A stretch of 15,960 nt of DNA from Candidatus Thorarchaeota archaeon MP11T_1 (GTDB lineage: Archaea; Asgardarchaeota; Thorarchaeia; Thorarchaeales; Thorarchaeaceae): positions 1 through 15,960 of the forward strand of contig PJET01000139.1 of assembly GCA_002825515.1 (NCBI GenBank). The letters run 5' to 3'. The notes below the pieces were generated by a model. It had not been told where the DNA came from and did not search any database. It saw only the letters and a program-made list of their open reading frames with translations. Both the position numbers and the translations under genes were made by a program. Positions 1-15,142 of the stretch are shown one piece after another; positions within the stretch are counted from its first letter, which is position 1; every line of letters starts with the position of its first letter.

Positions 1-540
1 ATCTAATCGAGCCAGCTCAGAGGGAGCAGTATCCTTGGCTTTTAGCCAAACTCGAGGTTCCTCTTTTTTTGTGCTAGTACAGATAATCTTGTTATCAGAC
101 CAGAGACTAGTAAGATCGGATTTATGAAGTTGCCAACTCGAGGTTTCATGAGTGTCTTTCTGAATTGAAACAAGTCTTCCATCACTTGCTCCCACATAGA
201 AATAATCACCATGAAGTGTCGATGTTAGAGCATTATAACTTAATTCAAACCAACCAGTCATTCCCCAGGTTTCTTTCTTCCACACATAGACTCTACGTTC
301 ACATGTTGCAAAAACCTGAGTATCATCCACATCAACAATTAAAGGTGGAGTATCTGTTTCTCCTAGCTCAGCCACCAGTTGCCAATCAGTTTTGGACCAG
401 ACTCGAATTCTTTGGTCTTTGCAAGCAGCATAGAGAAATGACTCATCATATGTAAGGTCAACTGCAGGTGCCTCTAGTAGGATAACTTTTTCATAACTTA
501 CAGGCACAGAGTCATTTGAGCCTAAGGAGCTTTTATCCAT
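1..540 (-). CDS. WD40 beta-propeller protein, N-terminal part (cut by window edge)
   Basis: This frame is open for 180 codons from an ATG at 540 to the left edge, so the C-terminus is missing. A Shine-Dalgarno AAGGGGAGA lies at 545-553, about 4 nt before the ATG. The protein shows four WD40-like blades about 40 residues apart: near residues 26-48 (ending RIRVW), 67-87 (ending RRVYVW), 106-125 (YVGASDGRLVSI) and 145-165 (ending PRVW). Each has the pattern of a hydrophobic strand, a YxAxxD/ASDG-type turn and a terminal hydrophobic-W. There is no signal peptide or membrane segment, so it should be cytoplasmic. WD40 propellers are protein-interaction scaffolds; no specific partner can be read from the sequence. 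It is transcribed divergently from the coiled-coil/tubulin-family operon across a 211-bp gap, so shared control is possible but unproven. The family assignment is good and the function is unknown. Confidence 0.85.
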   Translation of the reverse strand, partial: MDKSSLGSNDSVPVSYEKVILLEAPAVDLTYDESFLYAACKDQRIRVWSKTDWQLVAELGETDTPPLIVDVDDTQVFATCERRVYVWKKETWGMTGWFELSYNALTSTLHGDYFYVGASDGRLVSIQKDTHETSSWQLHKSDLTSLWSDNKIICTSTKKEEPRVWLKAKDTAPSELARLD

Positions 541-751: not shown

Positions 752-3442
752 TTGGATACCAGCGGATGGAGACGAGAATTAGATAAACTCGCCGAACTAA
801 AAGGAATCCTAGTTTCGGTAAATCCTGCGATGGAAGAACAGGCAGACCGTCAGGTTCGTCAACTCTATGACATCTTCGCAAACTTGACGAAATTAGATAA
901 CGATCTTGCCACAGCGGGATTTATGAAAAAAAGGAAGTTTCAGACTCAGGTGGATAAGACAGCTAGTGACTTGGAAACAGATTTCATGAGAGTGACTCGT
1001 GATTTTGCAGAATACTTCCGTAAGGAACTAAAGGACACACTTGCTATTGCACCAAAAATCCAGTCAATCAAGCCAGCAGAGGTAAAAGGAATATCAACAC
1101 TTAATTTTCCAGGCATTGGTGCTGGAGACCTTAAGGATTTTGAAAAGCTTCATGAGTTTGCAAAAGTGTTCTCCAAGCTATACTTGGTTATCCATGAAGA
1201 TGTTGCTCGAGAAGTCAAATCAGTCCTAGATGAGAACAAAGCCACGGTAGAAACTTATGAACGGCACATCACGATCGACAAAAGTGAAGTTGCAACCACA
1301 GTATCAAACAATGAGGTTTCAGGCCTCTCGCTCCGCGATCTTATCATTCTGAATGACAAACTTCAGACTGATAGAGAGTTTTTGGATGGCAGGAAGGATG
1401 AAGTAAGCAAGTTACTCAGTACTTCTCTTGTTGGCTCGACCGAGTCCCTTCAAGCATCTGTAGAAACTGCTGCTAAATTAGGCTTGGAATTACCCATGGA
1501 ATTCTCAAAGGAGCTCAGATTGATTGCGAGAGATGCTGCTAAAGCAGACACTTTGACATCCCTAGTGGCTCTAGAGAATCAGCTCCATTCGGCTCAGGTG
1601 AAAATGGCTAATGCACTCCGTGATAAGATCATTAACATAAAGCATGAAGTAACAACCAAAATTGTAGAGGGAGGAATCCCGACTACAGCAGAGGTGATCC
1701 CGACTCCACCTAATGTAAGTATAGAAGGAGATAACGTTGTATCCTTACTTTCTAGTTACCAGCGAATGGTGGAATGGGAAGGACAAGTTAAGATTGCACT
1801 CAAAGAACGTTTGTTCGAACTACTCGATGATGTTGAGAAGGCTACTGAAGCACCAGACGACGCAGGAGTAAAAGATGTCGTTGCTGTCCGTCAATTCATT
1901 GCAGATTCAAAGAAATCTTTGAAAACAGCAGAAATTAACGATATGGTCAGAATCTATCTCCAAGCAAAGTCAATGGACGACGAATATCGAAAGAATATCA
2001 CTGATAGTATTCGCGGTTATTTGGCAAAATTCAATGAGCTAGCAACATCAGCAGATAGAGTTTTGGACCATGCTCAATTGAGTAAGAAGGCTCCAAAGGT
2101 AGAAGAACTTGAGGGTGGAATTGTCTACTTGCTTGGTTCACTCACAAGTCTTCGAGGTGCAGTCGAGAGTGGTGTAGCAACATTTCGAGAAGCCTGTCAG
2201 CAGGAGATTGATGCTATTGTCCATGACCTACAGACGGTGAAACCAGCCTATGCAGAGATTTTCATGCCAATTATCGTAGAACTCGATGAAGGAGCAACAC
2301 GTATACAAGGCTTGGATGATTTTGCTGAAATCAAATCTGAAATGCGGTCTATCAAAGATGGCATTCTTGTCAAAGCTCAAGATGCTCTTGAGAACCTCAG
2401 ATACAGACTTGGTGTCAAGATCAGACTGGCTGCAGCTAAACTGATGGGCGCAGGCGTGGGAATTCCACCTGAAGCACAGGAAGCAATCAGTGAGTTGAAC
2501 AATGTTGGAGTTGCAGCTGACACAGTATTCAGCCTCCCAGCAATTGCACGAAAAATGGTCGAGATATATGAAAAGAAAATCCAAGACAAGATTATTGAAA
2601 AGCTTGGAACGGAGGTTGAGTCTCTCTCTACTAGCTTGGAGAGAGCAAGCAGCATTGGAGTGAAACTTAACAAAGAACTGAAGATGCTCAATGACCTTAA
2701 GAGTAATCCTCCATCTGAACTTGAAGAAGCAGCGGATGCATTTGATCAACTACAGAATCTTACTACCTCACCGAATGTTCACAAAAAGATTAGAGACCGC
2801 GTAGATGAAGCGTATGTGCAGATTAAGGGAGCGCTTTCACTTTTCGAACAGCAGGGAATGTCTGATTTTGTAGAACGGTTGAAAGTTCTCATTGAAAAAG
2901 TTCCATCTCAACTGGAAAAGGAGTCACCCCATGTCAACGAAGCACTGGACGTCTGTCTAACTCTATCGAATATTCAGGAAGAAATGCTCCAGATGATAAA
3001 GAGCATAGCTGGCAAGAGTGGTGAGTCTCATGTGGAGGAGTTGAAGACAAAGAGTCAGTATTATTCCACGATCGAACGAGTTATCGCAAAACATCCTGAT
3101 GATTTCAGCAAGATTGTTTTTGATATCAAGAAAATGGAAACACTTGAAGGAAGTCTCATTGAAGCGTTAGATCTAGATGATGCAATTACTAGCTTCCACG
3201 AATTGGAGGAATTACGAAGTCAGTGGTTGGATAAGGCTGTTGCAATGGATGACTGGCACAAGTCTCTTAGGATGTTCATGACTGGATTCAGTCCTGCAGC
3301 AAAACAAGATGAACGCGATAAGTTCATTGAAGATGCAATTAGGAAGGTAAAGGAAACCTATAGCCGAGAAGATATCAGTTCATACCTTAGCTGGGCAATT
3401 AAAGAGAGTGCTCAGGCTTTAGTCGATTCAAGAAAGAAATAG
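752..3442 (+). CDS. Large helical repeat/coiled-coil protein, first gene of a tubulin-family operon
   Basis: This 896-residue protein starts at a TTG with a good GGAGG site. It is almost entirely amphipathic helix, rich in E, K, D, L and A, with no signal peptide, membrane span or enzymatic motif, so it looks like a cytoplasmic structural or adaptor protein. Reading it against itself shows diverged internal repeats. A type A unit of about 60 residues appears at 238-296, 557-618 and 628-690 (small residues with a G-I/V-x-L/P turn, a helix, then a K-I-R/Q-D-K/R helix). A type B unit of about 48 residues appears at 318-365 and 447-494 (P-x-V-x-x-x-E-G, then V-x-x-LL-x-S). Residues 1-180 and 700-896 are helical without clear repeats. 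The tubulin-family GTPase gene follows after 14 nt, so co-transcription is near certain. I do not recognise the family. A spectrin- or talin-like rod that partners or organises the GTPase polymer is a reasonable guess only. Confidence 0.9.
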   Translation: MDTSGWRRELDKLAELKGILVSVNPAMEEQADRQVRQLYDIFANLTKLDNDLATAGFMKKRKFQTQVDKTASDLETDFMRVTRDFAEYFRKELKDTLAIAPKIQSIKPAEVKGISTLNFPGIGAGDLKDFEKLHEFAKVFSKLYLVIHEDVAREVKSVLDENKATVETYERHITIDKSEVATTVSNNEVSGLSLRDLIILNDKLQTDREFLDGRKDEVSKLLSTSLVGSTESLQASVETAAKLGLELPMEFSKELRLIARDAAKADTLTSLVALENQLHSAQVKMANALRDKIINIKHEVTTKIVEGGIPTTAEVIPTPPNVSIEGDNVVSLLSSYQRMVEWEGQVKIALKERLFELLDDVEKATEAPDDAGVKDVVAVRQFIADSKKSLKTAEINDMVRIYLQAKSMDDEYRKNITDSIRGYLAKFNELATSADRVLDHAQLSKKAPKVEELEGGIVYLLGSLTSLRGAVESGVATFREACQQEIDAIVHDLQTVKPAYAEIFMPIIVELDEGATRIQGLDDFAEIKSEMRSIKDGILVKAQDALENLRYRLGVKIRLAAAKLMGAGVGIPPEAQEAISELNNVGVAADTVFSLPAIARKMVEIYEKKIQDKIIEKLGTEVESLSTSLERASSIGVKLNKELKMLNDLKSNPPSELEEAADAFDQLQNLTTSPNVHKKIRDRVDEAYVQIKGALSLFEQQGMSDFVERLKVLIEKVPSQLEKESPHVNEALDVCLTLSNIQEEMLQMIKSIAGKSGESHVEELKTKSQYYSTIERVIAKHPDDFSKIVFDIKKMETLEGSLIEALDLDDAITSFHELEELRSQWLDKAVAMDDWHKSLRMFMTGFSPAAKQDERDKFIEDAIRKVKETYSREDISSYLSWAIKESAQALVDSRKK

Positions 3443-3456
3443 GAGAAAAAAAACCA

Positions 3457-4851
3457 ATGTTTGGAAGCAGTCCACCGAAAAAACCTGTTGAAATTGATGA
3501 TACAACAAAAGCAGCTGAAGTCTTCGCCATTGGAATTGGTGAATGTGGCTCAAACATTGTAGGGTCATATCTGCAAACAAGCAGAGACAAGAGACTACCA
3601 TCCAGAGTCAGGGGCTATTTGTTGATAAACACAGACAGAGCTGACCTAACTAAAGTTCGCCAAAAGTATGGAATTCCAAAAGAGAACACACTTCTTTATG
3701 GAGCTTCGGAAATTGGTGTGGGTGGTCGATTTATGGACGGGTACAATTCGATCATGGAGTCCAAGGATATCATCTTTGATCAGCTTGGAAATCTCGGATT
3801 CGAAGGAGTTTCAGGTTTCTGTATCTTCACAAGTCTTGGTGGTGGTACTGGATGTGGAGGTACACCTGCATTAATCGAGCTACTGAAACAGAGATTCCAG
3901 GAGGAGGAAGGACGTCGAATCTTCGTCTATGTTGTTGGAATCCTTCCATTTGAGGGTCAATCAAGTGAGGCGTTAAACTCAATCTGGGCGGTTTCAAAAT
4001 TACTACGTGCGCAGCTTCAAGAACGAGGTGCAGATCTCACAATCCTGCTTTCTAATAGAACGATGCTGAAGCGAATTCTCCAGTGGAGAAAAGGAGATAC
4101 TGTCGATTATCTCCGGAAGGAACTTGAAGTTGACATAGCTGATATTGACTCGATTGAAACCATGGTACCTTCAACTTTGGATGAGAGTTCTGATTTAGAG
4201 GCTAGAACTGAGCAAGCATTTGTAGAGCTTGTCAACCCCCTGGCTCTAGATGTTGTAGAGGCTATGCTTTCTCCTGGTGTTTGGGAGAAATCAAAGGACG
4301 TTTTCCCAACAACTGACCTTGCAGACTATGCAAGAAAACTAGACCCTGTTGTGGTTCCCGCGCTCTATACAGACATTGGTCTGATTCCTGACGCTGGCAG
4401 TATGCCAAAACAGCTAAAAACTATGATCGACTATGCTGTGATGGAATGTTCCTATGCCGATGTTGGTGAAGAGCCAAATGCAGAGAGTGTGTACTATGTC
4501 CTATCTGGACCTAGGCACATTGCGAAGGCAGAATTTGGTATGCATGTGAAAGAAGCATTAGACAAGTTCATTGCACCCGGGGCAGCAATAACCCCTTGCT
4601 ATGTGCAATATCATGAGGAAGACCCAAGGACAAACTTACTTCTTCTGCTTGGGCTACCTAAGATCCCTGAACTAGTCCAAATTATAAACGAAGCAACACA
4701 ACTGGTCAATCTACACAGTGGAGCCTCACCCCTCAAACAGGGGTGGTTCATGAGATCGAAAGGTACAACTCGAAAAGAGCTGGTTGATGCAATAAACGAC
4801 TTTCGTGAGTTATTCAGCTACTACATGACTCCAGGTGACACAATGGAATAG
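3457..4851 (+). CDS. Divergent tubulin/FtsZ-superfamily GTPase (CetZ-like)
   Basis: This 464-residue protein carries the nucleotide-binding loops of the tubulin/FtsZ family in order. They are T1 GIGECGSN (26-33), a T3-like glycine loop ASEIGVGGRF (83-92), the signature T4 loop GGGTGCGG (128-135), T5 GILPFEG (161-167), the guanine-contacting LSN (198-200), helix H7 (about 254-273), and a T7-like loop TTDLAD (285-290). T7 keeps both acidic residues of the FtsZ NxDxxD motif (D287, D290) but has Thr in place of Asn. The C-terminal activation domain is present (about 310-410). It is longer than usual FtsZ/CetZ (about 350-400 residues), with an insertion of about 45 residues near 205-250 before H7 and a short N-terminal extension. 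AGGAG (3441-3445) overlaps the stop of the upstream gene. It probably binds and hydrolyses GTP and polymerises. The operon context suggests a dedicated cytoskeletal or membrane-remodelling role rather than general cell division. It is not a canonical FtsZ. Confidence 0.87.
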   Translation: MFGSSPPKKPVEIDDTTKAAEVFAIGIGECGSNIVGSYLQTSRDKRLPSRVRGYLLINTDRADLTKVRQKYGIPKENTLLYGASEIGVGGRFMDGYNSIMESKDIIFDQLGNLGFEGVSGFCIFTSLGGGTGCGGTPALIELLKQRFQEEEGRRIFVYVVGILPFEGQSSEALNSIWAVSKLLRAQLQERGADLTILLSNRTMLKRILQWRKGDTVDYLRKELEVDIADIDSIETMVPSTLDESSDLEARTEQAFVELVNPLALDVVEAMLSPGVWEKSKDVFPTTDLADYARKLDPVVVPALYTDIGLIPDAGSMPKQLKTMIDYAVMECSYADVGEEPNAESVYYVLSGPRHIAKAEFGMHVKEALDKFIAPGAAITPCYVQYHEEDPRTNLLLLLGLPKIPELVQIINEATQLVNLHSGASPLKQGWFMRSKGTTRKELVDAINDFRELFSYYMTPGDTME

Positions 4852-4867
4852 AACTGGTGGTGACAGA

Positions 4868-5938
4868 ATGTCTGACTCCTCATCATTCCAATATGAAGAC
4901 CTCATAGATAGACTTCTTCTTATTGTCACCTTGAATTCAACACTCATTCACTTTCTTCTGAGCACTCAGGTTGAAGAAACTCTAGATCCTGATAGAGTTG
5001 ACTCTTTGACTCAAGGGCTCTTGAGAACACGCAAATGGATGGAGGAAGCTACCACAATGAAGGGGATTCCGCCATCCACACAGAATATCATGAGTCTAAT
5101 CGTGAAACGCCTCTCACAGATTGAGAGTCTTCTACCCAAATTATCGAATAAGGCCAGACAAATGGAATCTGGGACTGCTACACAAGAGATACTTTCTCTG
5201 CTTGAAGGGAGTGAGGTTCCAGCAGGACAGACAGCACCTACTGGAGGACCAGGAGCAGGACCTTCTGATAGTGAATTGGTCCCATTAGTGGGCGAGGAGC
5301 AACCAAAACCTGTCGAACCATTTCGCAAAGTCGATGTTGAAGATGACATGTTTGGTCTCATTGGTCAGAGCCAGAGATTAATCCAGCAATATTCGAAAAG
5401 ATGTCATATTCTCCTTCCGACTTTTTGGCTTGAATCTCTGAGAGAGATTCATCGATATAGATCTGACTCACCCTATTTTGGAGACGTTGTTGAGCTTCCG
5501 GCTCGAGTCTTGGTCAAAATAGCCAAAGGACTACTAACAGAAGCTCCAGGCGCAAGATTATTGCAGGATCTAATGAAACATCGTCAGCAAGAGAACTATC
5601 TGAATGGTTCCGAGATGGAACGAGTTGAAAGAGCAGTATCCAAATATTTCCAAGGGGTAGAACCGGTTCTCAAAGAGAACGAGCTTGATGTGAAAGAAAA
5701 AATCCTTGAAGCTCAAACGGCATTCGATGGTTTTGGGTGGGGTGGACCTGAACTCGAAAAACGCATCATTAAGAGACTGAATCAAGAGGTTGAGGAAGCT
5801 ATTCAAAATGCTGAGTCTGGTTCTGATCCTGCACGCCAGGTCATTTATGCGGAAATAGCGAAGCTACTTAGCAAACTTCAGCATGCCATTTTAGCTGAAT
5901 CGAGGCCAAGAGAGATTCTAGCTCAGATGAAACCCTGA
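4868..5938 (+). CDS. Two-domain helical protein, third gene of the tubulin-family operon
   Basis: A longer frame opens at a GTG at 4835 inside the previous gene, but GGTGGTGA (4855-4862) sits 5 nt before the ATG at 4868, giving a 356-residue protein. Residues 1-113 are helical, with a hydrophobic stretch at 16-31 that looks like a buried helix rather than a membrane span. Residues about 114-155 form a flexible Pro/Gly/Glu-rich linker (for example PTGGPGAGPS). Residues 156-356 are a second, mostly helical domain with conserved-looking aromatics (FW near 186-187, FGWGG at 289-293). There is no catalytic motif, signal peptide or metal site. Its start is 17 nt after the GTPase stop, so the two are translated together. 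By analogy with linker-containing partners of FtsZ it may be an adaptor, but I see no homology to SepF, ZipA or FtsA. The function is unknown. Confidence 0.88.
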   Translation: MSDSSSFQYEDLIDRLLLIVTLNSTLIHFLLSTQVEETLDPDRVDSLTQGLLRTRKWMEEATTMKGIPPSTQNIMSLIVKRLSQIESLLPKLSNKARQMESGTATQEILSLLEGSEVPAGQTAPTGGPGAGPSDSELVPLVGEEQPKPVEPFRKVDVEDDMFGLIGQSQRLIQQYSKRCHILLPTFWLESLREIHRYRSDSPYFGDVVELPARVLVKIAKGLLTEAPGARLLQDLMKHRQQENYLNGSEMERVERAVSKYFQGVEPVLKENELDVKEKILEAQTAFDGFGWGGPELEKRIIKRLNQEVEEAIQNAESGSDPARQVIYAEIAKLLSKLQHAILAESRPREILAQMKP

Positions 5939-6029: not shown

Positions 6030-7436
6030 ATGACTGCTCTAAAGACGATGCTTAATCCTAAAGTGACTGCAGTAGTTGGTGTTTCCACATCCAATCCCTT
6101 CAGTCCTGGCAATGTGATTTTTCGAAAACTTGCATTTGAGAATGGTCTTCCAACGTATCCTATTAATCCGAAAGGAGGAACTGTTGAAGGAGTAGCAGTC
6201 CATAAATCAATCACTGAAGCTCCTGATGACATCGAATTAGCGGTGATTTCAGTTCAAGCAAAATATGTTGCAGGAGTATTAACTGAGTGCGGGGAGAAAA
6301 ATATCAAATCTGTTATCGTTGTGTCTGGCGGCTTTAGTGAGGTTGGAGAAACAGGTGCTAGTCTTCAATCTGAGATTGTTAAAATTGCAAACAAATATGG
6401 AATCTCAATGGTTGGACCAAATTGCATCGGAGTTTTTGTACCAGATATTCTTGATACTTTCTTCTTACCCTCAGAACGAGTAGCCAGACCCAGAAAAGGA
6501 TGTGTAGCAATTATTTCACAGAGCGGAGGGTGGCTAATAGAAAGACTAGAAGAATTTGCGGGGAGAGATGTCGGGATAGCTGCAGCTATATCAATAGGCA
6601 ATGCAGCGCAGACTAAAGTGACTGATTTCGTTGAATATTTTGGCAAAGAGGCTAATGTAGACGTTATTCTTGCTTACATCGAAGGATTTGTTGAAGGAGA
6701 AGGAAGACAATTCGTCGAAACTTGTAAGAAGATAGTACCAAAGAAACCAGTAATCGTCCTCAAAGGCGGAGAGTCAGAAGCAGGCCATCGCGCAACTCAA
6801 AGTCATACGTCATCACTAGCAGGAGACCATGCTGTGACTAATGCCGCTTTCAATCAGTATGGGATCATTCATGCATTAGATGAAGATGAGGTGATGGCGT
6901 ATGCAAAAGTTTTCTCTTTCAAACCGAAGAAAATGCAAGGACCCAGAGTTGGGACATTAACTGTCAGCGGTGGACATGGAGTCATCGCCAGTGATGAAGC
7001 GTCACAATATGGTCTCTTAATGCCATTATTCAGTAAGGAGCAGCAAGAATCCATGCGAAAAGCAATGACTCCAGCTTACCAGAATATTGCATCATTTCGT
7101 AATCCCTGCGACTTGACTGGAAGTGCATCAGATATTGATTATGAACGAGTTCTTGATAAGATGCTTGAATTCAAAAACATTGACGCAGCTCTTTTGCTCC
7201 TCCTACCATATGCTCCTGGAATTTCTCTTCAGATAGGAGCTCGCGTAGCTAATATTGCCAAAAGACACAACAAGACTGTGATTGCATACGTTCCAGATTT
7301 GGACAAGTATGAAGTTATTATTCGTGGATTCGAGTTGAATGGGATTGCAGTTGGTGACACCATTGAGGAAGCAGTCCAAATGCTAAATGGAATTCAAATA
7401 CGTTCCAAATACCTCAGACGAATAGGGATGACCTAG
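6030..7436 (+). CDS. ADP-forming acyl-CoA synthetase, alpha (CoA-ligase) subunit
   Basis: This 468-residue protein has the layout of the alpha subunit of archaeal ADP-forming acetyl/acyl-CoA synthetases, which convert an acyl-CoA, ADP and phosphate to the acid, CoA and ATP. An N-terminal Rossmann CoA-binding domain (VVGVSTSNPFSPGNVI, 15-30; GPNCIGV, 129-135) is followed by succinyl-CoA-ligase-like domains with ISQSGG (162-167). The motif QSHTSSLAGD holds His259, which matches the phosphorylated histidine of the characterised alpha subunits (His257 region). There is no ATP-grasp beta domain: the protein ends at the usual alpha-subunit length and the next gene is unrelated and on the opposite strand. 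A separately encoded beta subunit is expected, as in Pyrococcus. The acyl substrate cannot be deduced. Its stop is one nucleotide away from the stop of the convergent IPP isomerase gene. Confidence 0.92.
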   Translation: MTALKTMLNPKVTAVVGVSTSNPFSPGNVIFRKLAFENGLPTYPINPKGGTVEGVAVHKSITEAPDDIELAVISVQAKYVAGVLTECGEKNIKSVIVVSGGFSEVGETGASLQSEIVKIANKYGISMVGPNCIGVFVPDILDTFFLPSERVARPRKGCVAIISQSGGWLIERLEEFAGRDVGIAAAISIGNAAQTKVTDFVEYFGKEANVDVILAYIEGFVEGEGRQFVETCKKIVPKKPVIVLKGGESEAGHRATQSHTSSLAGDHAVTNAAFNQYGIIHALDEDEVMAYAKVFSFKPKKMQGPRVGTLTVSGGHGVIASDEASQYGLLMPLFSKEQQESMRKAMTPAYQNIASFRNPCDLTGSASDIDYERVLDKMLEFKNIDAALLLLLPYAPGISLQIGARVANIAKRHNKTVIAYVPDLDKYEVIIRGFELNGIAVGDTIEEAVQMLNGIQIRSKYLRRIGMT

Positions 7437-7437
7437 C

Positions 7438-8568
7438 CTAGATTCCACGGGCAACTTTTTGATAATCAATACCAAGCGATTTCAGAGACTCAACAAGTTT
7501 ACCACTCAGTATTAGCTGTTTTGAGGACAAATCCTCAACCTTTTGAGATCCTGTAAGGTACATGGCGACTGCAAGTCCTTCAAGAAACCGCTCAAGCTCA
7601 ACAACAACATCCAATGATGAACCATGTACTGCTTGTCGAAGAAGAGGCTGAGCAATACCAGCAGCAGTTGATCCAAGAGCTAGCGCTTTCGCAATATCGA
7701 GACCGCTCCTAATTCCCCCCGTGGCAATTACGTCTAGTTCGGTAGAATCTAAGACCATCAACACACTCAAAGCTGTAGGAATACCCCAATCCCAAAACTC
7801 AAGACCTAGCTGAGCTTTGAGGTCGTCATCTTCTTTCTGGGCACGAAAGTACTCAACTCCAGCCCAACTGGTACCTCCAACGCCTCCAACATCAATTCCC
7901 GCAACACCGACTTCTTCTAATCGTTTTGCTACATCACTAGATATTCCAGCACCGGTTTCTTTGATAATGACAGGAATATCAACTGAATCAACTATAGTAG
8001 CGATGCTTTCCAAGGCACCAACTGAGTTGCAGTCACCCTCAGGTTGTATAGCTTCCTGGAGTGGGTTAAGATGAATCGCTAGGATGTCTGCATCAATCAT
8101 CCTCACTGCTTCAGGAGCGTCATCAACATGTGTAGCTCCAATGTTAGCTATCACTGGAACCGAAGGTGCAGATTCTCTGACGATTGTGAAAGTGTCAGCT
8201 AGTGATGGATCTTCCACAGCTGCTCTCTGACTACCTACACCAATAGGCAGTCCTAGTTCTTCCGCAGCACTCGCTAGTCGTTGGTTTATGCTTTTTGCCT
8301 TAGGATGTCCACCTGTCATTGCTGCAATGACCAATGGTGCATTAGCTCGTAAACCAAAGAAGTTGGTAGTGAGGTCGATACTGTCTTTATCTATCTCAGG
8401 TAGTGCATTATGAACGAATTCAATATCCTCGAACATGGTAGACCGTTGACACTGAACCTCTTCATCAAGACATATCTCGATATGCTCAATTTTTCTTCTC
8501 CTAGTCAATGATGCTTCTGATGCATCATCTTCTATTCCAGATTCATCTAGTGGTCTACCTTCGACCAT
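7438..8568 (-). CDS. fni: Type II isopentenyl-diphosphate delta-isomerase (FMN-dependent)
   Basis: This enzyme interconverts isopentenyl and dimethylallyl diphosphate using FMN and NAD(P)H, feeding archaeal isoprenoid lipid synthesis. Family motifs appear in order: TRRRKIEH (22-29), MTGG (84-87), VGSQRAA (111-117), NIGA (142-145), HLNPLQEAIQPEGD (166-179, including metal and substrate ligands), KETGAGIS (203-210), GVGGTSW (229-235) and TGGIRSG (283-289). The start at 8568 is chosen over an in-frame ATG at 8628 for two reasons. GGAGGT (8575-8580 on this strand) lies 6 nt before 8568, and the likely TATA box (8632-8643) would place the transcript start downstream of 8628. The 376-residue product is slightly longer than the usual 350 or so because of an acidic N-terminal extension of about 20 residues. 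It converges on the acyl-CoA synthetase gene with a 1-nt gap. Confidence 0.96.
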   Translation of the reverse strand: MVEGRPLDESGIEDDASEASLTRRRKIEHIEICLDEEVQCQRSTMFEDIEFVHNALPEIDKDSIDLTTNFFGLRANAPLVIAAMTGGHPKAKSINQRLASAAEELGLPIGVGSQRAAVEDPSLADTFTIVRESAPSVPVIANIGATHVDDAPEAVRMIDADILAIHLNPLQEAIQPEGDCNSVGALESIATIVDSVDIPVIIKETGAGISSDVAKRLEEVGVAGIDVGGVGGTSWAGVEYFRAQKEDDDLKAQLGLEFWDWGIPTALSVLMVLDSTELDVIATGGIRSGLDIAKALALGSTAAGIAQPLLRQAVHGSSLDVVVELERFLEGLAVAMYLTGSQKVEDLSSKQLILSGKLVESLKSLGIDYQKVARGI

Positions 8569-8574
8569 CACAGT

Positions 8575-8580
8575 ACCTCC
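8575..8580 (-). promoter_or_regulatory. Shine-Dalgarno GGAGGT fixing the start of the IPP isomerase
   Basis: Read on the minus strand, GGAGGT is followed by 6 nt and the ATG at 8568. This is an optimal spacing. The alternative ATG at 8628 has no such site. Confidence 0.75.
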
Positions 8581-8596
8581 GACAATAAGATGAGTA

Positions 8597-8608
8597 AGTA
8601 CATGTACT
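8597..8608. promoter_or_regulatory. 12-bp perfect palindrome, possible operator
   Basis: AGTACATGTACT reads the same on both strands. It lies just downstream of where transcription of the isomerase gene should start (about 25 nt from the TATA candidate at 8632-8643) and upstream of its Shine-Dalgarno site. That is a typical place for an archaeal repressor to bind. No regulator is known for it, so its role is inferred from position and symmetry alone. Confidence 0.35.
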
Positions 8609-8631
8609 GATAGGAGTTGTGGTCGCATTAT

Positions 8632-8677: not shown

Positions 8678-8711
8678 TGACTAAACTCTCCTACAGTACA
8701 GTGTGACGTTT

Positions 8712-9260
8712 ATGGCAAACGAGGAAAAGTACAGAGTTGAAACTCCAGAAGAGGAAGAAAAACCAGAAGAGAAGAAAGGTCTTCTGAAACCACTTCCAAC
8801 AAGAGAAGAACCTCAGTACATCGATAAGGATGGGAGACCTCAGCCAATCGTCAAGGTATTAGGAGTATCAATGCCTGAAAAAAGAAAAGACCTCCTTATG
8901 ATGACTTTAATTCCTGCGTTAGTTGGACTGATTGACACGACAATTTACTCTTTCATAATCACGGGAACATTTGAGAGTTCAGCCACATACTTATTTTTCG
9001 TCCCAATTATCGTTGCCATTCCCATTGGATTGACAGCTGCTGAAGCTGGAAGAGCTCTTGTTTCAAGCCTCTTTGGTGCGATCTTTTTCATGATATTCTT
9101 CATTATATTCCTTGCATCACCAGGTCTATATGTACCAGAACTCGGAATTGGTTCTTTCTTGTTGAGTGCACTTACTTTGTCGATTGCATACTTCATTTTA
9201 ATAATAGTTTCAACATTTCTAGGGACGGTTTTTGGGGTCATTATTCGAGAATTCTTTTGA
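8712..9260 (+). CDS. Small four-helix membrane protein with charged N-terminal tail
   Basis: I chose the ATG at 8712 over a GTG at 8703; neither has a clear Shine-Dalgarno site and the promoter position suggests a very short leader. The 182-residue product has a hydrophilic N-terminal segment (about 1-60), strongly acidic/lysine-rich at 3-22 (runs of E and K) with no signal peptide. Four hydrophobic helices follow at about 61-83, 91-113, 116-137 and 147-176, and the last is followed by the short polar end IIREFF. The N-terminus is probably cytoplasmic. I do not recognise the family. The general shape (charged tail plus a four-helix bundle) resembles many uncharacterised archaeal membrane proteins and gives no substrate. 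It stands alone between divergent and downstream promoters, so it is probably a single-gene unit. Confidence 0.8.
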   Translation: MANEEKYRVETPEEEEKPEEKKGLLKPLPTREEPQYIDKDGRPQPIVKVLGVSMPEKRKDLLMMTLIPALVGLIDTTIYSFIITGTFESSATYLFFVPIIVAIPIGLTAAEAGRALVSSLFGAIFFMIFFIIFLASPGLYVPELGIGSFLLSALTLSIAYFILIIVSTFLGTVFGVIIREFF

Positions 9261-9380: not shown

Positions 9381-9989
9381 ATGAAGCGGATTGGTGTCCT
9401 CATCAGTGGACGTGGAACAAATCTTCAAGCACTTATTGATGCTCAATTACATGGAGAACTTGGTGGAGAGATAGTTGTTGTAGTGAGCAATAAATCCAAA
9501 GCCGTAGGTATCAAGCGAGCTCAGACAGCTGGGATTCCGACTGAAATTGTAACCAAGAAGTCGTATCAAAGTAGAGTTGAGTTCGACAGCAATCTCCTAC
9601 AAGTTCTTAGAAAATATGGTGTTGATCTTGTAGTGCTTGCAGGATTTATGAGAATTCTTAGTGATGATTTCATAAATGCATATCCGAACAGAATAATCAA
9701 TGTTCATCCTTCAATCCTCCCAACTTTCAAAGGTGTAAAAGCTCAATGGCAAGCAGTCAATCATGGAGTTAAGGTATCAGGTTGTACCACGCATTTTGTG
9801 ACTAATGAAATGGACAACGGACCAATAATTCTACAAAAATCAGTTCCAGTATTTGAAAACGATGATGGTGAAGCGCTTGCGAACAGGATTCTACCTCAAG
9901 AACACATTATTCTAGTGCAATCAGTACGTCTTTTTTGTGAAGGACGCCTTGAAGTTGAAGGGAGAAGAGTAATTATCAAAGATAGGTGA
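9381..9989 (+). CDS. purN: Phosphoribosylglycinamide (GAR) formyltransferase
   Basis: PurN transfers a formyl group from 10-formyltetrahydrofolate to GAR to make FGAR, the third step of purine synthesis. The 202-residue length is typical. The N-terminal ISGRGTNLQALI (8-19) is the phosphate-binding loop, and the catalytic Asn-x-His-P lies at 107-110 in INVHPSILP. The essential Asp is D145 in NEMDNGPII. Thus N107, H109 and D145 match the catalytic triad known from the E. coli enzyme. The segment after FKG reads VKAQWQAV where bacterial enzymes often have a histidine-containing variant; this looks like a lineage feature. It is the first gene of the purine operon, and its stop overlaps the Shine-Dalgarno site of purF. 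Folate dependence here contrasts with the formate-dependent PurP two genes downstream. Confidence 0.96.
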   Translation: MKRIGVLISGRGTNLQALIDAQLHGELGGEIVVVVSNKSKAVGIKRAQTAGIPTEIVTKKSYQSRVEFDSNLLQVLRKYGVDLVVLAGFMRILSDDFINAYPNRIINVHPSILPTFKGVKAQWQAVNHGVKVSGCTTHFVTNEMDNGPIILQKSVPVFENDDGEALANRILPQEHIILVQSVRLFCEGRLEVEGRRVIIKDR

Positions 9990-9990
9990 G
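9984..9990 (+). promoter_or_regulatory. Shine-Dalgarno AGGTGAG inside the purN stop
   Basis: It overlaps the TGA of purN and lies 7 nt before the ATG at 9998. It settles the purF start in favour of the ATG that leaves Cys at position 2. Confidence 0.7.
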
Positions 9991-9997
9991 TAATACA

Positions 9998-11392
9998 ATG
10001 TGCGGAGTGTTGGGAATTTTGGGGGATTATTCTTTGAAAATGGCAAGAGACCTTTTGCTTCTACTGACGCATCGAGGCCAAGACGCTTCAGGACTCTTGT
10101 GGGTAAATGATGGGGAAACTGCTATTTCAAGGGCAATGGGAAGTCCAGACAGGATTAATATCGAAGAACAAAACAGCAAATTCATTTTGGGTTGTACAAG
10201 ATACCCAACTATTGGTCGTCGTGTTGCGTCGGAAGAAGAACTAGATTCATTTGTAGGACCTTTTAGTTCTGGGATTGTATCTCTAACGCATAATGGTAAC
10301 GTGACCAATATTAACACTCTCTCGTCGAAAAACTATGATTGTGACACTGAATTTCTTGTCGAACGCATTGCGTGTAATATTGATGCTTCTGAAGGAAATC
10401 TACCCAAAGCATTCAAAAAACTTGAATCCGAGGTCGATGGAGCATTTAGTTTAGTTGGGATTGTAAATGACAAACTATTTGCTTATAGAGATAGTAGAGG
10501 GTTCAAACCACTTGTTTTCGGTAGAAGCAACGACACAACAATGGTCGCATCAGAGAGTACTGTTCTAGATATGGCGGGAGTTCAATTAGAACGTGATGTC
10601 TATCCAGGCGAGCTGCTCATCTTTGATAAAGGGGGAGTGATGGAATCATATTCGATTTCACAGAATGCGTTGCACTCTCACTGTTTCTTTGAGTATGTAT
10701 ACTTTGCACATCCAGCTGCCATGATAGAAAATCAGCTTGTTTACGATGTAAGATTCAGACTGGGCAGAGCACTTGCACAAGCTTTCAACAAGATGAATCA
10801 TAGCCCTCCTGACTATGTTGTACCAGTACCGGATACGAGTAGACCAGCCGCTCAAGCAATGGCAGAATCATTACAAGTGCCTATTAGAGAAATTATTCTC
10901 AAGAACCGATACCTGGGTCGTACTTTCATAATGAGGACTCAAGAAGAAAGAGACTCGATGGCTCGAAACAAGTACATCTATCTTGATGATAAAATCAAAG
11001 GAAAGAACATACTTGTTGTTGATGACAGTATTGTACGGGGGACCACAGCAAGAATGATTGTTGACGATCTAAAGAGAAGAGGTGCATCAAAGGTCTACTT
11101 CGCTGTGACATGTCCACCACAGAGTCATCCATGCTATTATGGCATTGATATTGCGACTGATCGTGAATTAATAGCATCTACAGCAAATATTGAGGAGATT
11201 GCTGATTTTGTTCAAGCTGATGCATTGGTCTATCAAGAAACTGCTACACTTGAGAATGCTATTGGTCTCAAAGATCTATGTTTGGCATGTTTAGATGGAA
11301 AATATCCAACAGAGTATGCGCAGAGAATCCGTGATAAGGTTCAAGAACTAGAAACAGTAACATATGGAAGAGACTATGAGAGGGATTTGTAG
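9998..11392 (+). CDS. purF: Amidophosphoribosyltransferase (glutamine PRPP amidotransferase)
   Basis: PurF makes phosphoribosylamine from PRPP and glutamine, the first committed purine step. The frame is open from a GTG at 9986, but the start is set at 9998 so that Cys2 becomes the N-terminal nucleophile of the glutaminase after Met removal. AGGTGAG (9984-9990) supports this. The Ntn glutaminase domain shows HRGQDASG (25-32), the TRYPT arginine (67-71) and THNGN (97-101). The phosphoribosyltransferase domain carries the PRPP loop ILVVDDSIVRGTT (338-350). Four cysteines sit where the 4Fe-4S ligands of the Bacillus-type enzyme lie: C229 (HCFFEYVYFA), C379 (HPCYYGID), and C428 and C431 (CLACLDGKYPT). 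An oxygen-sensitive, cluster-containing enzyme is therefore likely. Length 464 residues, normal. The purP1 ATG follows after 2 nt. Confidence 0.97.
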   Translation: MCGVLGILGDYSLKMARDLLLLLTHRGQDASGLLWVNDGETAISRAMGSPDRINIEEQNSKFILGCTRYPTIGRRVASEEELDSFVGPFSSGIVSLTHNGNVTNINTLSSKNYDCDTEFLVERIACNIDASEGNLPKAFKKLESEVDGAFSLVGIVNDKLFAYRDSRGFKPLVFGRSNDTTMVASESTVLDMAGVQLERDVYPGELLIFDKGGVMESYSISQNALHSHCFFEYVYFAHPAAMIENQLVYDVRFRLGRALAQAFNKMNHSPPDYVVPVPDTSRPAAQAMAESLQVPIREIILKNRYLGRTFIMRTQEERDSMARNKYIYLDDKIKGKNILVVDDSIVRGTTARMIVDDLKRRGASKVYFAVTCPPQSHPCYYGIDIATDRELIASTANIEEIADFVQADALVYQETATLENAIGLKDLCLACLDGKYPTEYAQRIRDKVQELETVTYGRDYERDL

Positions 11393-11394
11393 GA

Positions 11395-12348
11395 ATGAAG
11401 ATTGGAACCATCGCAAGTCATAGCGCCCTGAACATAATTTCAGGAGCGAAAGCCGAGGGGTTTCAAACAGAACTATACTGTCCACCTGAACGCATAGATT
11501 TCTACAAATCATTTGGTCTGGAAAATTCAATTGTTGAAATTGAGTCCTTTGATCAGATACTAGAAATGAATCTCTCAGATGTTGTATTAATTCCACATGG
11601 TTCATTCGTGGCTTATATCGGTGCTCAGAAAATACTTGATTCAGATTTGAAATTATTTGGAAATAAAGAGCTGTTAAAATGGGAAGAGAATCGCAAGCTG
11701 AAATCGAAATTAATGAAAGAAGCAGGATTCATGCTTCCAAGAGAATATTCATCATTAGAGGAGATTGACGGCCCAGTAATTGCCAAAACTCATGGTGCAG
11801 CAGGTGGTGAGGGCTATTTCATCGCAAAGAATGGCGATGAGATCAAAAAGAGTATGGATCCATCAATCCAATACTCGTTTCAAGAGTATATTGTTGGAAC
11901 AAAAGTGTTTGTCACATATTTCAACTCAATAGCAAAGAAAAGAACAGAGGTCTTTGGGGCAGACATTAGATATGAAACAGATGCTGATGCTAATGTTCGA
12001 TTTGACAACCAACCGAGTTTTATTGTAGTCGGTAATTTGCCTTTGGTCTTAAGAGAATCAACTCTAGTAAAATATTATGACATGGGCGTCGCTTTCGTAA
12101 AGGCATTTCATAGTCTTTCTAAGCAATCTATACCTGGACCATTCTGCATTGAAACAATTATTGACAATAGGCAGAGAATCTACAGCTTTGAATTCAGTGG
12201 GAGGATAGTCGCCGGAACAAATGTGTGGATACCCTCCTCACCATATTCGTATCTCCAATTCGGAGAACCTGTTTGGATGGGCAGAAGGATTGCGATTGAA
12301 ATTCGTGAACTAATTGAGCAAAATAGACTTGATGAGGCATTAAAATGA
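11395..12348 (+). CDS. purP: Formate-dependent AICAR formyltransferase (FAICAR synthetase), PurP
   Basis: PurP is an archaeal ATP-grasp enzyme that formylates AICAR with free formate and ATP, replacing the folate-dependent domain of PurH. Signature segments are the N-terminal ASHSALNI (7-14), the glycine-rich ATP-grasp loop GAAGGEGYFIA (134-144) after Lys131, FQEYIVG (162-168), VVLRES-type VLRES (218-222), RIVAGTN (270-276), SPYSYL (282-287) and GRRIA (296-300). At 317 residues it is shorter than the Methanocaldococcus enzyme (361). Much of the difference seems to lie in shortened loops, notably around 194-206, and not in a truncation, since the start is 2 nt after the purF stop and the C-terminal motifs are intact. 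It is followed by a diverged paralogue. Confidence 0.93.
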   Translation: MKIGTIASHSALNIISGAKAEGFQTELYCPPERIDFYKSFGLENSIVEIESFDQILEMNLSDVVLIPHGSFVAYIGAQKILDSDLKLFGNKELLKWEENRKLKSKLMKEAGFMLPREYSSLEEIDGPVIAKTHGAAGGEGYFIAKNGDEIKKSMDPSIQYSFQEYIVGTKVFVTYFNSIAKKRTEVFGADIRYETDADANVRFDNQPSFIVVGNLPLVLRESTLVKYYDMGVAFVKAFHSLSKQSIPGPFCIETIIDNRQRIYSFEFSGRIVAGTNVWIPSSPYSYLQFGEPVWMGRRIAIEIRELIEQNRLDEALK

Positions 12349-12362
12349 AGGAAGTGAGATAG

Positions 12363-13436
12363 ATGAAACTACCCACAATTGGTATGATTGGTTCACACAG
12401 TGCTGAAGAGATTGGAATAGCCGCAAAGGCAAATGGCTTTCGTACAGCTATAGTATGTGAGAAAGGTAGAGAACATCTGTATACTCACTACAATGAGCAT
12501 CTCTATGATGAATTTATTATTCTTGACAGATTTAGGGATATAATTCAAGATGACATTCAAAAGAAGTTAGAGGAGCTGGATACTCTCTGGATACCAAATA
12601 GGTCGTTCTCTGTTTATGTGGGATATAATGAAATTGAAAATGATTTTAGAATACCCCTGTATGGAAATCGGTATTTATTGAGAGTTGAAGAAAGAGGCTT
12701 TCCAAAGGATCAATACTGGCTTCTAAAAGAATCAGGCATCAGAACACCAAAATCATTCACTCCAGATTCAATTGATAGACTAGTAATTATCAAAGTCCAA
12801 CAAAAAGACAATCCACTTGAACGAGCTTTCTTCTTTGCATCTTCATCAGCTGACTATGAAACCGAGAGTCGTTCACTACTCAAAGAAGGAATAATCTCAG
12901 AGGAGGACCTGAGGAAAGCAACTATCGAGGAATTTGTGCTTGCACCCCGTTTCAATGCTAATTTTCAAGCATATGGTATGAGTCATTATTTTGGTGACCT
13001 AGATTTAGTCGGTTTTGATGATCGCATCCAGACCAATATCTCGGGGTTACTCAATCTACCAGCTAAGGAGCAGTTGAAAATCAAGATTTCGATATTGAAT
13101 GAAGAAGTTGGCCACAAAGGAGTCACTATGAGAGAAAGTAAGAAGCCACTTGTGTACAAAACCGCAGAGTTGCTACTAAAGGGAATAGAGCAACATTTTC
13201 CGCCCAAGATGATAGGTCTCTTCTCTCTTCAAGGTGCAATTACAGAAGCTTCAGAATTTATTGTCTTTGACCTAAGTCCAAGAGTGCCAGGAGCACCTTG
13301 TGTAGGACCAACAAGTCCTGAGATGAGAAGATTATCTATCAAATTCAAAGTTGATATTCAAAGCCCACTAGACCTCTGCATGATAGATATCAAAGCCGCT
13401 GTGGAAGAAAATAATCTAGATGAGGTGTCAACATGA
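12363..13436 (+). CDS. PurP paralogue (PurP2-type), probably altered ATP-grasp site
   Basis: This 357-residue protein belongs to the same family as its upstream neighbour: GSHSAEE (10-16) matches the PurP N-terminus, IEEFVLAPRFNANF (188-201) matches the EEYVVG region, and TMRES (255-259) matches VLRES. It differs where it matters. The glycine-rich ATP-grasp loop is replaced by KVQQKDNPLERAFFFAS (144-160), and the RIVAGTN/SPYSYL region reads SPRVPGAPCVGPTSP (305-319). Several archaea carry a second PurP of this kind, and as far as I recall its activity is not established. It could be a non-catalytic partner of PurP1, a differently specific ligase, or an alternative AICAR formylating enzyme. 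GGAAGTGA (12350-12357) precedes the ATG, with 14 nt between the two purP genes, so they are co-expressed. Confidence 0.88.
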   Translation: MKLPTIGMIGSHSAEEIGIAAKANGFRTAIVCEKGREHLYTHYNEHLYDEFIILDRFRDIIQDDIQKKLEELDTLWIPNRSFSVYVGYNEIENDFRIPLYGNRYLLRVEERGFPKDQYWLLKESGIRTPKSFTPDSIDRLVIIKVQQKDNPLERAFFFASSSADYETESRSLLKEGIISEEDLRKATIEEFVLAPRFNANFQAYGMSHYFGDLDLVGFDDRIQTNISGLLNLPAKEQLKIKISILNEEVGHKGVTMRESKKPLVYKTAELLLKGIEQHFPPKMIGLFSLQGAITEASEFIVFDLSPRVPGAPCVGPTSPEMRRLSIKFKVDIQSPLDLCMIDIKAAVEENNLDEVST

Positions 13437-13437
13437 A

Positions 13438-13446
13438 TTTATTTAA
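13438..13446 (+). promoter_or_regulatory. Possible internal promoter (TATA) before purC/S
   Basis: TTTATTTAA lies just after the stop of the second purP gene, in the longest gap (48 bp) of the purine operon. A start site about 25 nt downstream would leave a short leader carrying GGAGAGGA (13473-13480) before the ATG at 13485. It might allow purC/S-purQ-purL to be transcribed separately. Judged by sequence only. Confidence 0.35.
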
Positions 13447-13484
13447 TCCACCTACATGGATAATAGAATCAAGGAGAGGAAATC

Positions 13485-14449
13485 ATGGATTTAATTCATG
13501 AAGGAAAAGTGAAGAGAGTATATCAAGATCCTAAATCACGTGATAACGTGATAATTGAATTCATGGATGTAGTCACAGCACTTGATGGAAAAAAGCGAGA
13601 AGAGGTTGAAGGCAAAGGGGATCTTGCTTGTAACACTACTGAATTTCTTCTTGGCTACCTTGAGGGCAAAGGTATAGACACACATTTTCTGAAAAAGCTT
13701 GATGGTCCTAGATTACTATGTAGAAAAACGGAGATTTATCCTATTGAGGTTGTATGCCGCAATATTGCAGCAGGTTCATTCTGTCGTCGATATGGGGTGA
13801 AAAAGGGAAAGGTTTTGGAGATTCCTATTATTGAATTCTTTCTGAAAGATGATGAACTGCATGATCCATTGATTACGGATAATGCAATTATTGGTTTGAA
13901 TCTCATCACTAACGAAATACTGCAATTCGTTCAATCAGTGACACATTCTGCAAACTATTACCTTACTGAGTTGTTGAAACAACGAAACCTTACTCTGGTA
14001 GATTTCAAACTCGAGTTTGGATACACAAAGGATAGGCACATAGTTCTAGCTGATGAACTCTCAGGGGATACGATGAGAATCTGGGGAAAAAATCAAGTCT
14101 CGATGGATAAGGATGTGTTTAGGGAGGATAAAGGAGATCTCTCCAAAGTCTATACGACACTTATGAACGAACTAACCCAAACAAAACCTGAGGAAGTGAG
14201 AAATCGGAGAGAGATAGTGCAGGTATTAGTAAATCCGAAGGATGGGATTAAGAATCCTCCAGGTGACGTAACTAAGAAAGCATTAGTTAGATTAGGTTTC
14301 GGAGAAGCTGATGATGTTAGAGTTGGGAAGATTTTCAATATCTATCTTAGAAAACCCGTGACGTCGGAAGTTCTCAATCATCTCAAAATCATGAACATCA
14401 AACTCCTCTCCAATCCAATTTCCGAAAAACAAGAGGTGAGCTTCAGATA

Positions 14450-14450
<1 letters not shown>
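13485..14450 (+). CDS. purC: PurC-PurS fusion: SAICAR synthetase plus FGAM synthetase small subunit
   Basis: This is one continuous 321-residue frame. Residues 1 to about 236 are SAICAR synthetase (CAIR + aspartate + ATP): GKVKRVY (7-13) is the ATP-binding start, followed by the EVVCRNIAAGSFCRRYG segment (88-104), LITDNAI (129-135), LVDFKLEFG (171-179), and LADELSGDTMRIW (188-200), the substrate-binding signature. Residues about 242-320 match PurS, the roughly 80-residue FGAM synthetase subunit: VQVLVNPKDGIKNPPG (245-260), then KALVRLGF (265-272), DDVRVGKIF (276-284), and KLLSNPISE (306-314), the usual LxANPVIE-type end. PurC alone is normally about 235-240 residues and PurS about 80, so the length fits exactly. 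The next genes are purQ and purL, the other FGAM synthetase subunits. A sequencing error removing a stop cannot be excluded without comparison, but no frameshift is needed to read both domains. Confidence 0.93.
14433..14440 (+). promoter_or_regulatory. Shine-Dalgarno GAGGTGAG deciding the GTG start of purQ
   Basis: This near-consensus site lies within the end of purC/S, 9 nt before the GTG at 14450, and indicates translational coupling of the two genes. Confidence 0.65.

Positions 14451-15138
<688 letters not shown>

Positions 15139-15142
<4 letters not shown>

What the first reader, a model, noticed from the sequence alone, without database searches (positions are those of the whole stretch)
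752..5938. Uncharacterised three-gene operon: giant helical repeat protein, tubulin-family GTPase and two-domain helical partner
Three genes are packed with gaps of 14 and 16 nt. The middle one carries the full tubulin/FtsZ loop set (GGGTGCGG at T4). The flanking ones are helical, non-enzymatic and unrecognised. I know of no described FtsZ, CetZ, TubZ or artubulin locus with this composition: no SepF, ParA, segregation or phage gene is present. The arrangement suggests a dedicated polymer with its own rod-like scaffold (896 residues) and a linker-containing adaptor, that is, a self-contained archaeal cytoskeletal or membrane-shaping module.
Basis: partly seen in the sequence, partly recalled or inferred. 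Interest (0 to 1): 0.82.

Follow-up and report, generated by a model that had tools for sequence, protein, structure and literature searches.

The report
Asgard archaeal three-gene tubulin-like module
In many Asgard archaea, close relatives of eukaryotes, a tubulin-like protein is encoded together with two unknown helical proteins, which suggests a little-known cell skeleton separate from the division machinery.

Summary
The three genes are real: A, 752-3442 (896 aa, predicted all-helical); B, 3457-4851 (464 aa, tubulin/FtsZ GTPase); C, 4868-5938 (356 aa, helical); gaps 14 and 16 nt. The window is Thorarchaeota-like. Of 56 related loci with sequence on both sides of B, 50 show A-B-C in order on one strand. 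Of 73 Asgard genomes (227 searched) with any of the genes, 65 have all three; in the other eight the hits are partial or at a contig end. A and B trees recover the same lineages and share one A+B duplication. Carriers also have FtsZ-like proteins. B's best solved relatives are CetZs. B may belong to Asg.Tub, a group reported in 2023 with unknown, mostly coiled-coil neighbours; I found no description of the conserved operon in what I read. Most likely B forms GTP-driven filaments, A is a rod that bundles or spaces them, and C is an adaptor. Joint function is well supported; the three roles are inference. The catalytic T7 loop is only inferred: B's C-terminal half matches no superfamily structure by sequence.

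The parts
752..3442 (+). Gene A: 896-aa helical protein, probably rod-like, with a tentative internal repeat of about 66 residues (TTG start)
   Evidence: ORF; model, mean pLDDT 85.7, helices only (pTM 0.39, so overall shape unsure); profile self-comparison off-diagonals at shifts near 63, 137, 235-275 and 331; full-length homologues 894-1311 aa
3041..3439 (+). C-terminal stretch of A (residues 764-896): 4 of the 9 invariant and 5 of the 6 nearly invariant residues of the family
   Evidence: alignment A2 of 19 sequences; part of what is left of A in L010 and L041
3457..4851 (+). Gene B: 464-aa tubulin/FtsZ-superfamily GTPase
   Evidence: PF00091 69.9 bits; best solved relatives 4b46, 3zid, 4b45; one search listed homologues 49-94% identical
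3532..3555 (+). T1-like loop GIGECGSN (residues 26-33)
   Evidence: alignment A1; aligned to CetZ
3838..3861 (+). T4 GTP-binding loop GGGTGCGG (residues 128-135)
4051..4059 (+). T6-like Ser-Asn-Arg (residues 199-201)
   Evidence: hhalign to Asgard FtsZ-like proteins covers residues 16-205
4306..4326 (+). Inferred T7 catalytic loop PTTDLAD (residues 284-290; D287 and D290 invariant)
   Evidence: 57 of 57 full-length B proteins; position is inference, not aligned to a known structure
4868..5938 (+). Gene C: 356-aa two-domain helical protein (GTG at 4835 possible)
   Evidence: start by comparison with L001; model, mean pLDDT 83.4
4892..5206 (+). C N-terminal three-helix domain (residues 9-113) with a hydrophobic first helix
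   Evidence: in 53 of 57 C proteins the most hydrophobic 19-residue window starts within the first 100 residues
5207..5317 (+). C disordered linker, rich in Pro and Gly (residues 114-150)
   Evidence: pLDDT 36-54 in blocks 111-150
5321..5929 (+). C C-terminal helical domain (residues 152-354)
   Evidence: pLDDT 92-98; seven of the family's eight invariant residues lie in it and the eighth, K355, just behind it

Best explanation
The locus encodes a dedicated, non-divisional tubulin-superfamily cytoskeleton of Asgard archaea. B binds GTP and assembles head to tail into CetZ-like filaments, with turnover by hydrolysis at the T7 loop of the next subunit. A is a long helical rod whose length differs between lineages; it binds the filaments and bundles, spaces or links them, much as rod-shaped filament-associated proteins do. 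C is an adaptor: its compact C-terminal domain binds A or B, and its hydrophobic N-terminal three-helix domain on a flexible linker ties the assembly to the membrane or to another partner. Shown here: co-occurrence and kept order of the three genes, B's GTP-binding half, helical predictions for A and C, FtsZ-like proteins in the same genomes. Inferred: polymerisation, hydrolysis, the rod and adaptor roles, and a task in cell shape or membrane organisation rather than division.
For: Joint function: A adjacent upstream in 59 of 62 loci with room, C adjacent downstream in 57 of 60, A-B-C in 50 of 56; 65 of 73 carrier genomes have all three, partial matches counted. A and B trees agree at lineage level and share one A+B duplication in Heimdall-/Hodarchaeota. 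B: PF00091, best solved relatives CetZ1 and CetZ2 (PDB names from PMC9856176), invariant T1 and T4 glycines in 24 of 24, D287 and D290 invariant in 57 of 57. Separate from FtsZ: one or two FtsZ-like PF00091 proteins besides B in 9 of 9 module genomes listed in full; 48 of the 65 full carriers show three or more PF00091 matches, B included. A: helical, self-similar, 894 to 1311 aa where full length. C.
Against: B's C-terminal half matches no FtsZ, CetZ or tubulin chain by sequence at E up to 10, and forced hhalign put FtsZ's T7 elsewhere, so polymerisation and hydrolysis could differ. Foldseek found no significant solved relative for A or C (best E about 0.09). No transmembrane-like segment in A or B; C's hydrophobic helix passes 1.6 on the Kyte-Doolittle scale in only 12 of 57 and may simply be a buried helix. 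Second copies L053, L054, L056 lack C. In two loci on assembled chromosomes, L010 and L041, only the C-terminal part of A was found (about 233 and 609 residues), which is either misassembly or a sign that the full rod is not always needed. No interaction was tested.
Confidence: 0.5

Rival explanations
1. B is a nucleotide-switch GTPase of tubulin fold that does not form long polymers; A is a tethering rod (as in vesicle tethers) and C a membrane or cargo adaptor, so the module is a trafficking or membrane-tethering complex.
For: The unrecognisable C-terminal half of B. In Heimdallarchaeota locus L042 the module lies near an Arf-family GTPase and a CDC48-like ATPase, and in L053 the second A+B pair lies beside two Gtr1/RagA-type GTPases (Pfam); L044, L046, L049, L054 and L056 show like-looking ORFs, not tested. 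A published haloarchaeal precedent links a CetZ-like protein to an adaptin-like sorting system (PMC10936438, passage).
Against: Neighbours differ between lineages: in Thor a WD40-like protein and a CoA ligase, in Borr (L038) a chaperonin and a CoA ligase; the two Baldr (L059) neighbours scanned matched nothing. T1/T4 and the D-x-x-D motif stay invariant, as expected of hydrolysing polymers.
Confidence: 0.2
2. The module serves cell division as an accessory to FtsZ: A acts like a spectrin-type Z-ring regulator, C as membrane anchor in place of SepF.
For: Carriers have FtsZ-like proteins. In eight carriers that I assign to Heimdall-/Hodarchaeota no SepF was found while the module is present: G005, G006, G007, G010 through named loci, G049, G052, G058 by matching coordinates to named loci, G050 by list position.
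Against: SepF and the module coexist in 11 of 20 carriers tested. 154 of 227 Asgard genomes show none of the three genes, although 219 of 227 have a PF00091 protein.
Confidence: 0.13
3. B segregates DNA or a plasmid, as TubZ does.
For: TubZ also belongs to the superfamily (PMC9871819).
Against: Mostly one locus per genome, on records titled chromosome in L010, L016 and L041-L043; trees follow the named lineages; no relative in 72,556 plasmid records at E up to 0.01 and none confirmed in viral contigs.
Confidence: 0.05
4. The three genes are merely neighbours kept by chance or shared transcription.
For: Operons can persist without interaction.
Against: Order kept across lineages in which A and C have fallen to 16-27% identity, joint presence and absence, joint duplication of A and B.
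Confidence: 0.04

Closest known systems
Asg.Tub, CetZ-like group of Asgardarchaeota (Santana-Molina et al. 2023, PMC9871819)
   Same: Asgard CetZ-like GTPase; the paper says the context of such proteins is unknown genes, most with coiled-coil regions, and that the C-terminus matches no other family, as here. The Heimdallarchaeota LC_3 protein named 'Tubulin-like protein CetZ' is a homologue of B at 51% (P0115).
   Different: Described there as Heimdallarchaeia and Lokiarchaeia; my named carriers are mostly Thor-, Hermod-, Borr-, Heimdall-/Hod- and Baldrarchaeota, and the few labelled Loki look Thor-like. In the sections I read (7, 8 and found passages) no conserved A-B-C operon, joint inheritance or partner families are described. 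I could not compare sequences.
CetZ (H. volcanii CetZ1 4B46, CetZ2 4B45)
   Same: Best solved relatives of B in the GTP-binding half; CetZs too coexist with two FtsZs in Haloferax (abstract of PMC10606840).
   Different: B's C-terminal half not recognisable by sequence; two dedicated helical partners.
Archaeal FtsZ1/FtsZ2 with SepF
   Same: Superfamily, T4 motif.
   Different: TIGR00065 30.5 bits against a cut-off of 295.2; FtsZ-like genes are separate in the same genomes; no SepF seen in the locus.
Asgard tubulins AtubA/B/C, OdinTubulin
   Same: Asgard, superfamily; AtubA among the weak PDB hits of B (25.9 bits).
   Different: [quoted passage not shown] B scores weakly against them and has a conserved context.
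FtsZl1 system (Makarova and Koonin 2010, PMC2875224)
   Same: FtsZ-like GTPase predicted to work with dedicated partners in membrane remodelling.
   Different: FtsZl1 carries its coiled coil and helical domain in the same long protein and is linked to a vWA protein, another GTPase and OmpA-type proteins (part 1 of the text).

Membership tests
Tubulin/FtsZ superfamily | Match to PF00091 above the curated cut-off | tested here: met
   69.9 bits against 33, residues 21-205
Tubulin/FtsZ superfamily | T4 glycine-rich motif (GGGTG[ST]G in the classical form) | tested here: met
   GGGTGCGG; its six glycines invariant in 24 of 24; Cys replaces the classical Ser/Thr
Tubulin/FtsZ superfamily | T7 loop with catalytic acidic residues | tested here: inconclusive
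   PTTDLAD-like motif with D287 and D290 invariant in 57 of 57, but no confident alignment to a known T7
FtsZ (cell division) | NCBIfam TIGR00065 above cut-off | tested here: not met
   30.5 bits against 295.2
CetZ | Closest solved relatives are CetZs | tested here: met
   4b46 47.5 bits, 3zid 35.7, 4b45 32.4; other FtsZ and tubulin chains listed at 26 bits or less; 3zid as CetZ is recalled
CetZ | CetZ-type C-terminal domain | tested here: inconclusive
   No match of the C-terminal half to a PDB chain of the superfamily at E up to 10; no fold of B was predicted
CetZ | Groups with CetZ in a tree of the superfamily | not tested
   No CetZ sequences were in hand
Asg.Tub | CetZ-like protein of Heimdall- and Lokiarchaeia with coiled-coil neighbours | tested here: inconclusive
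   All listed homologues that bear an organism name are Asgard and A and C are helical, but coiled coils were not computed and true Lokiarchaeia carriers were not seen by name
Asg.Tub | Same sequences as the published group | not testable with these tools
   Supplementary files could not be opened
FtsZl1 | FtsZ-like domain, coiled coil and helical domain in one protein, with vWA partner | tested here: not met
   B is 464 aa and the helical parts are separate genes; no vWA hit among the 7 window proteins or the 20 neighbours
TubZ-type segregation | Carried on plasmids or phages | tested here: not met
   No plasmid match at E up to 0.01, no confirmed viral match

The most novel reading that the evidence does not exclude
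A hitherto undescribed cytoskeletal system, already present before most of the sampled carrier lineages split: a CetZ-like polymer with its own co-inherited, length-variable helical rod (by analogy an archaeal counterpart of a microtubule-associated rod protein) and a two-domain adaptor. In Heimdall-/Hodarchaeota, which are often placed nearest to eukaryotes (recalled), the polymer-rod pair was duplicated and the copy lies beside Rag-type GTPases.
Probability: 0.4. Interest if true: 0.87.

Novelty: new variant of a known kind. Interest (0 to 1): 0.72.

Why it matters
[quoted passage not shown] This would be a further tubulin-superfamily system, held by 72 of 227 Asgard genomes searched (by B), with dedicated accessory proteins, which prokaryotic tubulin relatives seldom have (recalled). 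Three proteins of 464, 896 and 356 aa without clear transmembrane segments can be co-expressed and tested directly for filaments, bundling and lipid binding.

Tried and rejected
First idea rejected: I took N260-P-L-A-L for the T7 loop and thought the catalytic Asp had been lost. The MAFFT column that suggested a match aligned this stretch to the 'NPLL' that lies beyond T7 in FtsZ (reading of FtsZ from recall), and P-T-T-D-L-A-D further on has two Asp invariant in 57 of 57. hhalign with forced coverage put FtsZ's T7 at about residues 223-230 instead; D226 there is also invariant in 57 of 57, but only 26 residues after N200 of T6, too few for helix H7 by recalled FtsZ geometry. Left as inference.

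Repeat HMM from hand-picked units of A finds the units it was built from, and weakly or not at all those of other lineages; biased, so I rely on the profile self-comparison, whose E-values may also be inflated by helical composition.

Mirror correlations of -ln identity, A-B 0.958, B-C 0.931, A-C 0.971 over 1081 pairs of 47 loci, and the hypergeometric values mostly reflect shared descent and are not used as proof of interaction.

Is the 311-aa gene beside the second copies a replacement for C? No similarity found. Searches of plasmids and viral contigs gave nothing. Profile searches of A and C against PDB gave only rows at E 0.012 or worse.
Full report
What is in the window. ORF listing gives A 752-3442 (+, 896 aa), B 3457-4851 (+, 464 aa) and C 4868-5938 (+, 356 aa; a GTG at 4835 would give 367). 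Upstream and divergent is the start of a WD40-like protein (1-540, -; matches below Pfam cut-offs). Downstream follow a CoA-ligase alpha-type protein (6030-7436), a type 2 IPP isomerase on the other strand (7438-8628; TIGR02151), a 185-aa protein without a family (8703-9260) and genes I read as purine synthesis (9381-15960; recognised by eye, not tested). B's closest full-length relative among the fetched loci is Thorarchaeota L001 (97%); two partial contigs of Thorarchaeota SMTZ1-45, L058 and L066, match at 100% and 99%. No whole genome is held for the window.

B. Pfam PF00091 at 69.9 bits, and NCBIfam ftsZ at only 30.5 of the 295.2 required. A profile of 24 homologues finds 4b46 (47.5 bits), 3zid and 4b45 first, then tubulin-like chains and tubulins at 26 bits and less (84 sequences matched, 60 shown). 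4B46 is CetZ1 and 4B45 CetZ2 of H. volcanii (PMC9856176, passages); 3zid as a CetZ is recalled. Similarity fades after T6: a profile of the C-terminal half finds no superfamily chain at E up to 10, and hhalign against Asgard FtsZ-like proteins aligns residues 16-205. Beyond it, P284, D287, D290, L295 and D296 are invariant in 57 of 57; by spacing and resemblance to NxDxxD (recalled) I take residues 284-290 as T7.

A and C. AlphaFold2 with 19-row alignments gives helical models: A mean pLDDT 85.7 but pTM 0.39, so local helices are trusted and overall shape is not; C mean pLDDT 83.4, pTM 0.59, as a three-helix domain, a disordered linker and a compact C-terminal domain at pLDDT 92-98. No Pfam family recurs among 19 A or 19 C proteins: each listed family matched one member only. 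A's profile aligns to itself at shifts near 63, 137, 235-275 and 331 columns, which I read as a repeat of about 66 residues. Of 62 A copies, six begin at a locus edge. Two of the other 56, L010 and L041 on records titled chromosome, hold only a C-terminal part, with no trace of the rest by tblastn. The remaining 54 run from 894 to 1311 aa: about 895-940 in Thor, Hermod and Borr, 1023-1029 in Baldr, 1140-1311 in Heimdall/Hod. Neither A nor B has a transmembrane-like segment (best 19-residue Kyte-Doolittle mean 1.59); C's first helix is hydrophobic, passing 1.6 in 12 of 57.

Does the module hold together? One pattern-based scan of the GTDB species contigs gave 66 loci; all bear Asgard lineage names or the bare label 'archaeon'. 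With my thresholds (at least 600 nt upstream, 300 nt downstream of B): A adjacent in 59 of 62, C in 57 of 60, both in 50 of 56. Exceptions: L026 (513 nt between A and B), L046 and L047 (other ORFs between; A is 4.3 kb upstream in L046 and outside L047's held stretch, probably 9.9 kb upstream if L047 is contig C230 of G052, as coordinates suggest) and the second copies L053, L054, L056 (no C). In 227 genomes of the phylum, profiles hit 74 (B), 70 (A) and 68 (C) at E up to 1e-5. I dropped G175 and G176 from B: their hits are about 39 bits over profile positions 12-136, in ORFs of 375 and 380 aa with an FtsZ-type GGGTGSG. Then B is in 72, the union is 73 and all three are in 65, partial matches counted. 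The eight exceptions are G051, G056, G057, G071, G189, G195, G199 and G220; in seven B is a partial match and in G189 A begins at base 39 of its contig. I did not check every contig length. Absence elsewhere is limited by the fast first look of the tool and by incomplete genomes.

Homologue searches with A and C profiles (161 and 211 proteins, 120 of each listed, only about 8000 candidates scored) list only Asgard organisms where an organism is named; this does not exclude distant relatives elsewhere.

Trees of 30 B and 28 A proteins recover Thor, Hermod, Borr, Heimdall/Hod and Baldr in both, and in both the second copies are sister to the other Heimdall/Hod sequences, so A and B were duplicated together. 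The order among lineages differs between the trees at weak or long-branched joins. A and C have drifted to 16-27% identity between lineages while B stays at about 40-60%.

Relation to division. Nine module genomes searched in full (G002-G005, G008, G012, G049, G058, G069) each have one or two FtsZ-like PF00091 proteins in addition to B, and 48 of 65 full carriers show three or more PF00091 matches, B included. SepF was found in 11 of 20 carriers; it was not found in G179 or in the eight I assign to Heimdall/Hod. So the module is neither a replacement for FtsZ nor tied to SepF.

Neighbours. In Thor a WD40-like protein and a CoA ligase flank it; a CoA ligase also follows C in Borrarchaeum L038. 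In L042 an Arf-family GTPase and a CDC48-like ATPase lie nearby, and a gene of 273-297 aa follows C in L042, L044, L046 and L049. In L053 the second A+B pair stands beside two Gtr1/RagA GTPases and a 311-aa unknown that is conserved in L054 and L056.

Print. Santana-Molina et al. 2023 (PMC9871819; outline, sections 7 and 8, and found passages) describe Asg.Tub, CetZ-like, from Heimdallarchaeia and Lokiarchaeia, among proteins whose neighbours are unknown and mostly coiled-coil. Searches listed no paper whose title or shown start of abstract describes this three-gene module; only open-licence full texts are covered, figures are not held and supplements could not be opened, so Figure 6 of that paper may show the same genes. 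I also saw part 1 of PMC2875224, part 1 of the Results of PMC13394414 with found passages, and found passages only of PMC5898192, PMC12583498, PMC10936438, PMC12993045 and PMC9856176.

Verdict. A real and old module around a CetZ-like GTPase, seen only in Asgard archaea in what I searched. The GTPase family may be known; the dedicated partners and their joint inheritance are the new part. Filament formation and the rod and adaptor roles are the most likely mechanism and remain untested.

Noticed in passing
L053, L054, L056: Second A+B pairs without C in Heimdall-/Hodarchaeota; in L053 they lie beside two Gtr1/RagA-type GTPases (Pfam tested there only) and in all three beside a conserved 311-aa protein that matches no Pfam family in L053.
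   Followed up: partly
L010:9094-9957 and L041:7986-9965: On records titled chromosome only the C-terminal part of A is found next to B; misassembly or true shortening not settled.
   Followed up: partly
   Followed up: partly
L042:12532-13425, L044:12580-13401, L046:12559-13434, L049:12559-13437: A fourth gene of 273-297 aa follows C in Heimdall-/Hodarchaeota; no Pfam match in L042, only weak ones below cut-off in L049 (the two tested).
   Followed up: partly
window 6030-7436; L038:12655-14076: A CoA ligase (acetate-CoA ligase alpha-type) gene follows C in Thor- and also in Borrarchaeota, an unexplained wider conservation.
   Followed up: no
window 1-540 (-); L001:5181-7088 (-): Divergent WD40-like protein upstream of A in Thorarchaeota (Pfam scores below cut-offs); 635 aa in L001.
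   Followed up: no
window 8703-9260: 185-aa protein, hydrophobic by eye and probably of the membrane, with no Pfam or NCBIfam match; a like-looking gene stands at the same place in L012.
   Followed up: no
window 9381-15960: Purine biosynthesis cluster by eye, with two tandem purP-like genes (11395-12348 and 12363-13436).
   Followed up: no
L011, L026, L061: Bins labelled Lokiarchaeota (L011, L026) or Odinarchaeota (L061) carry Thor-like or Baldr-like copies, so their labels are doubtful.
   Followed up: partly
   Followed up: no
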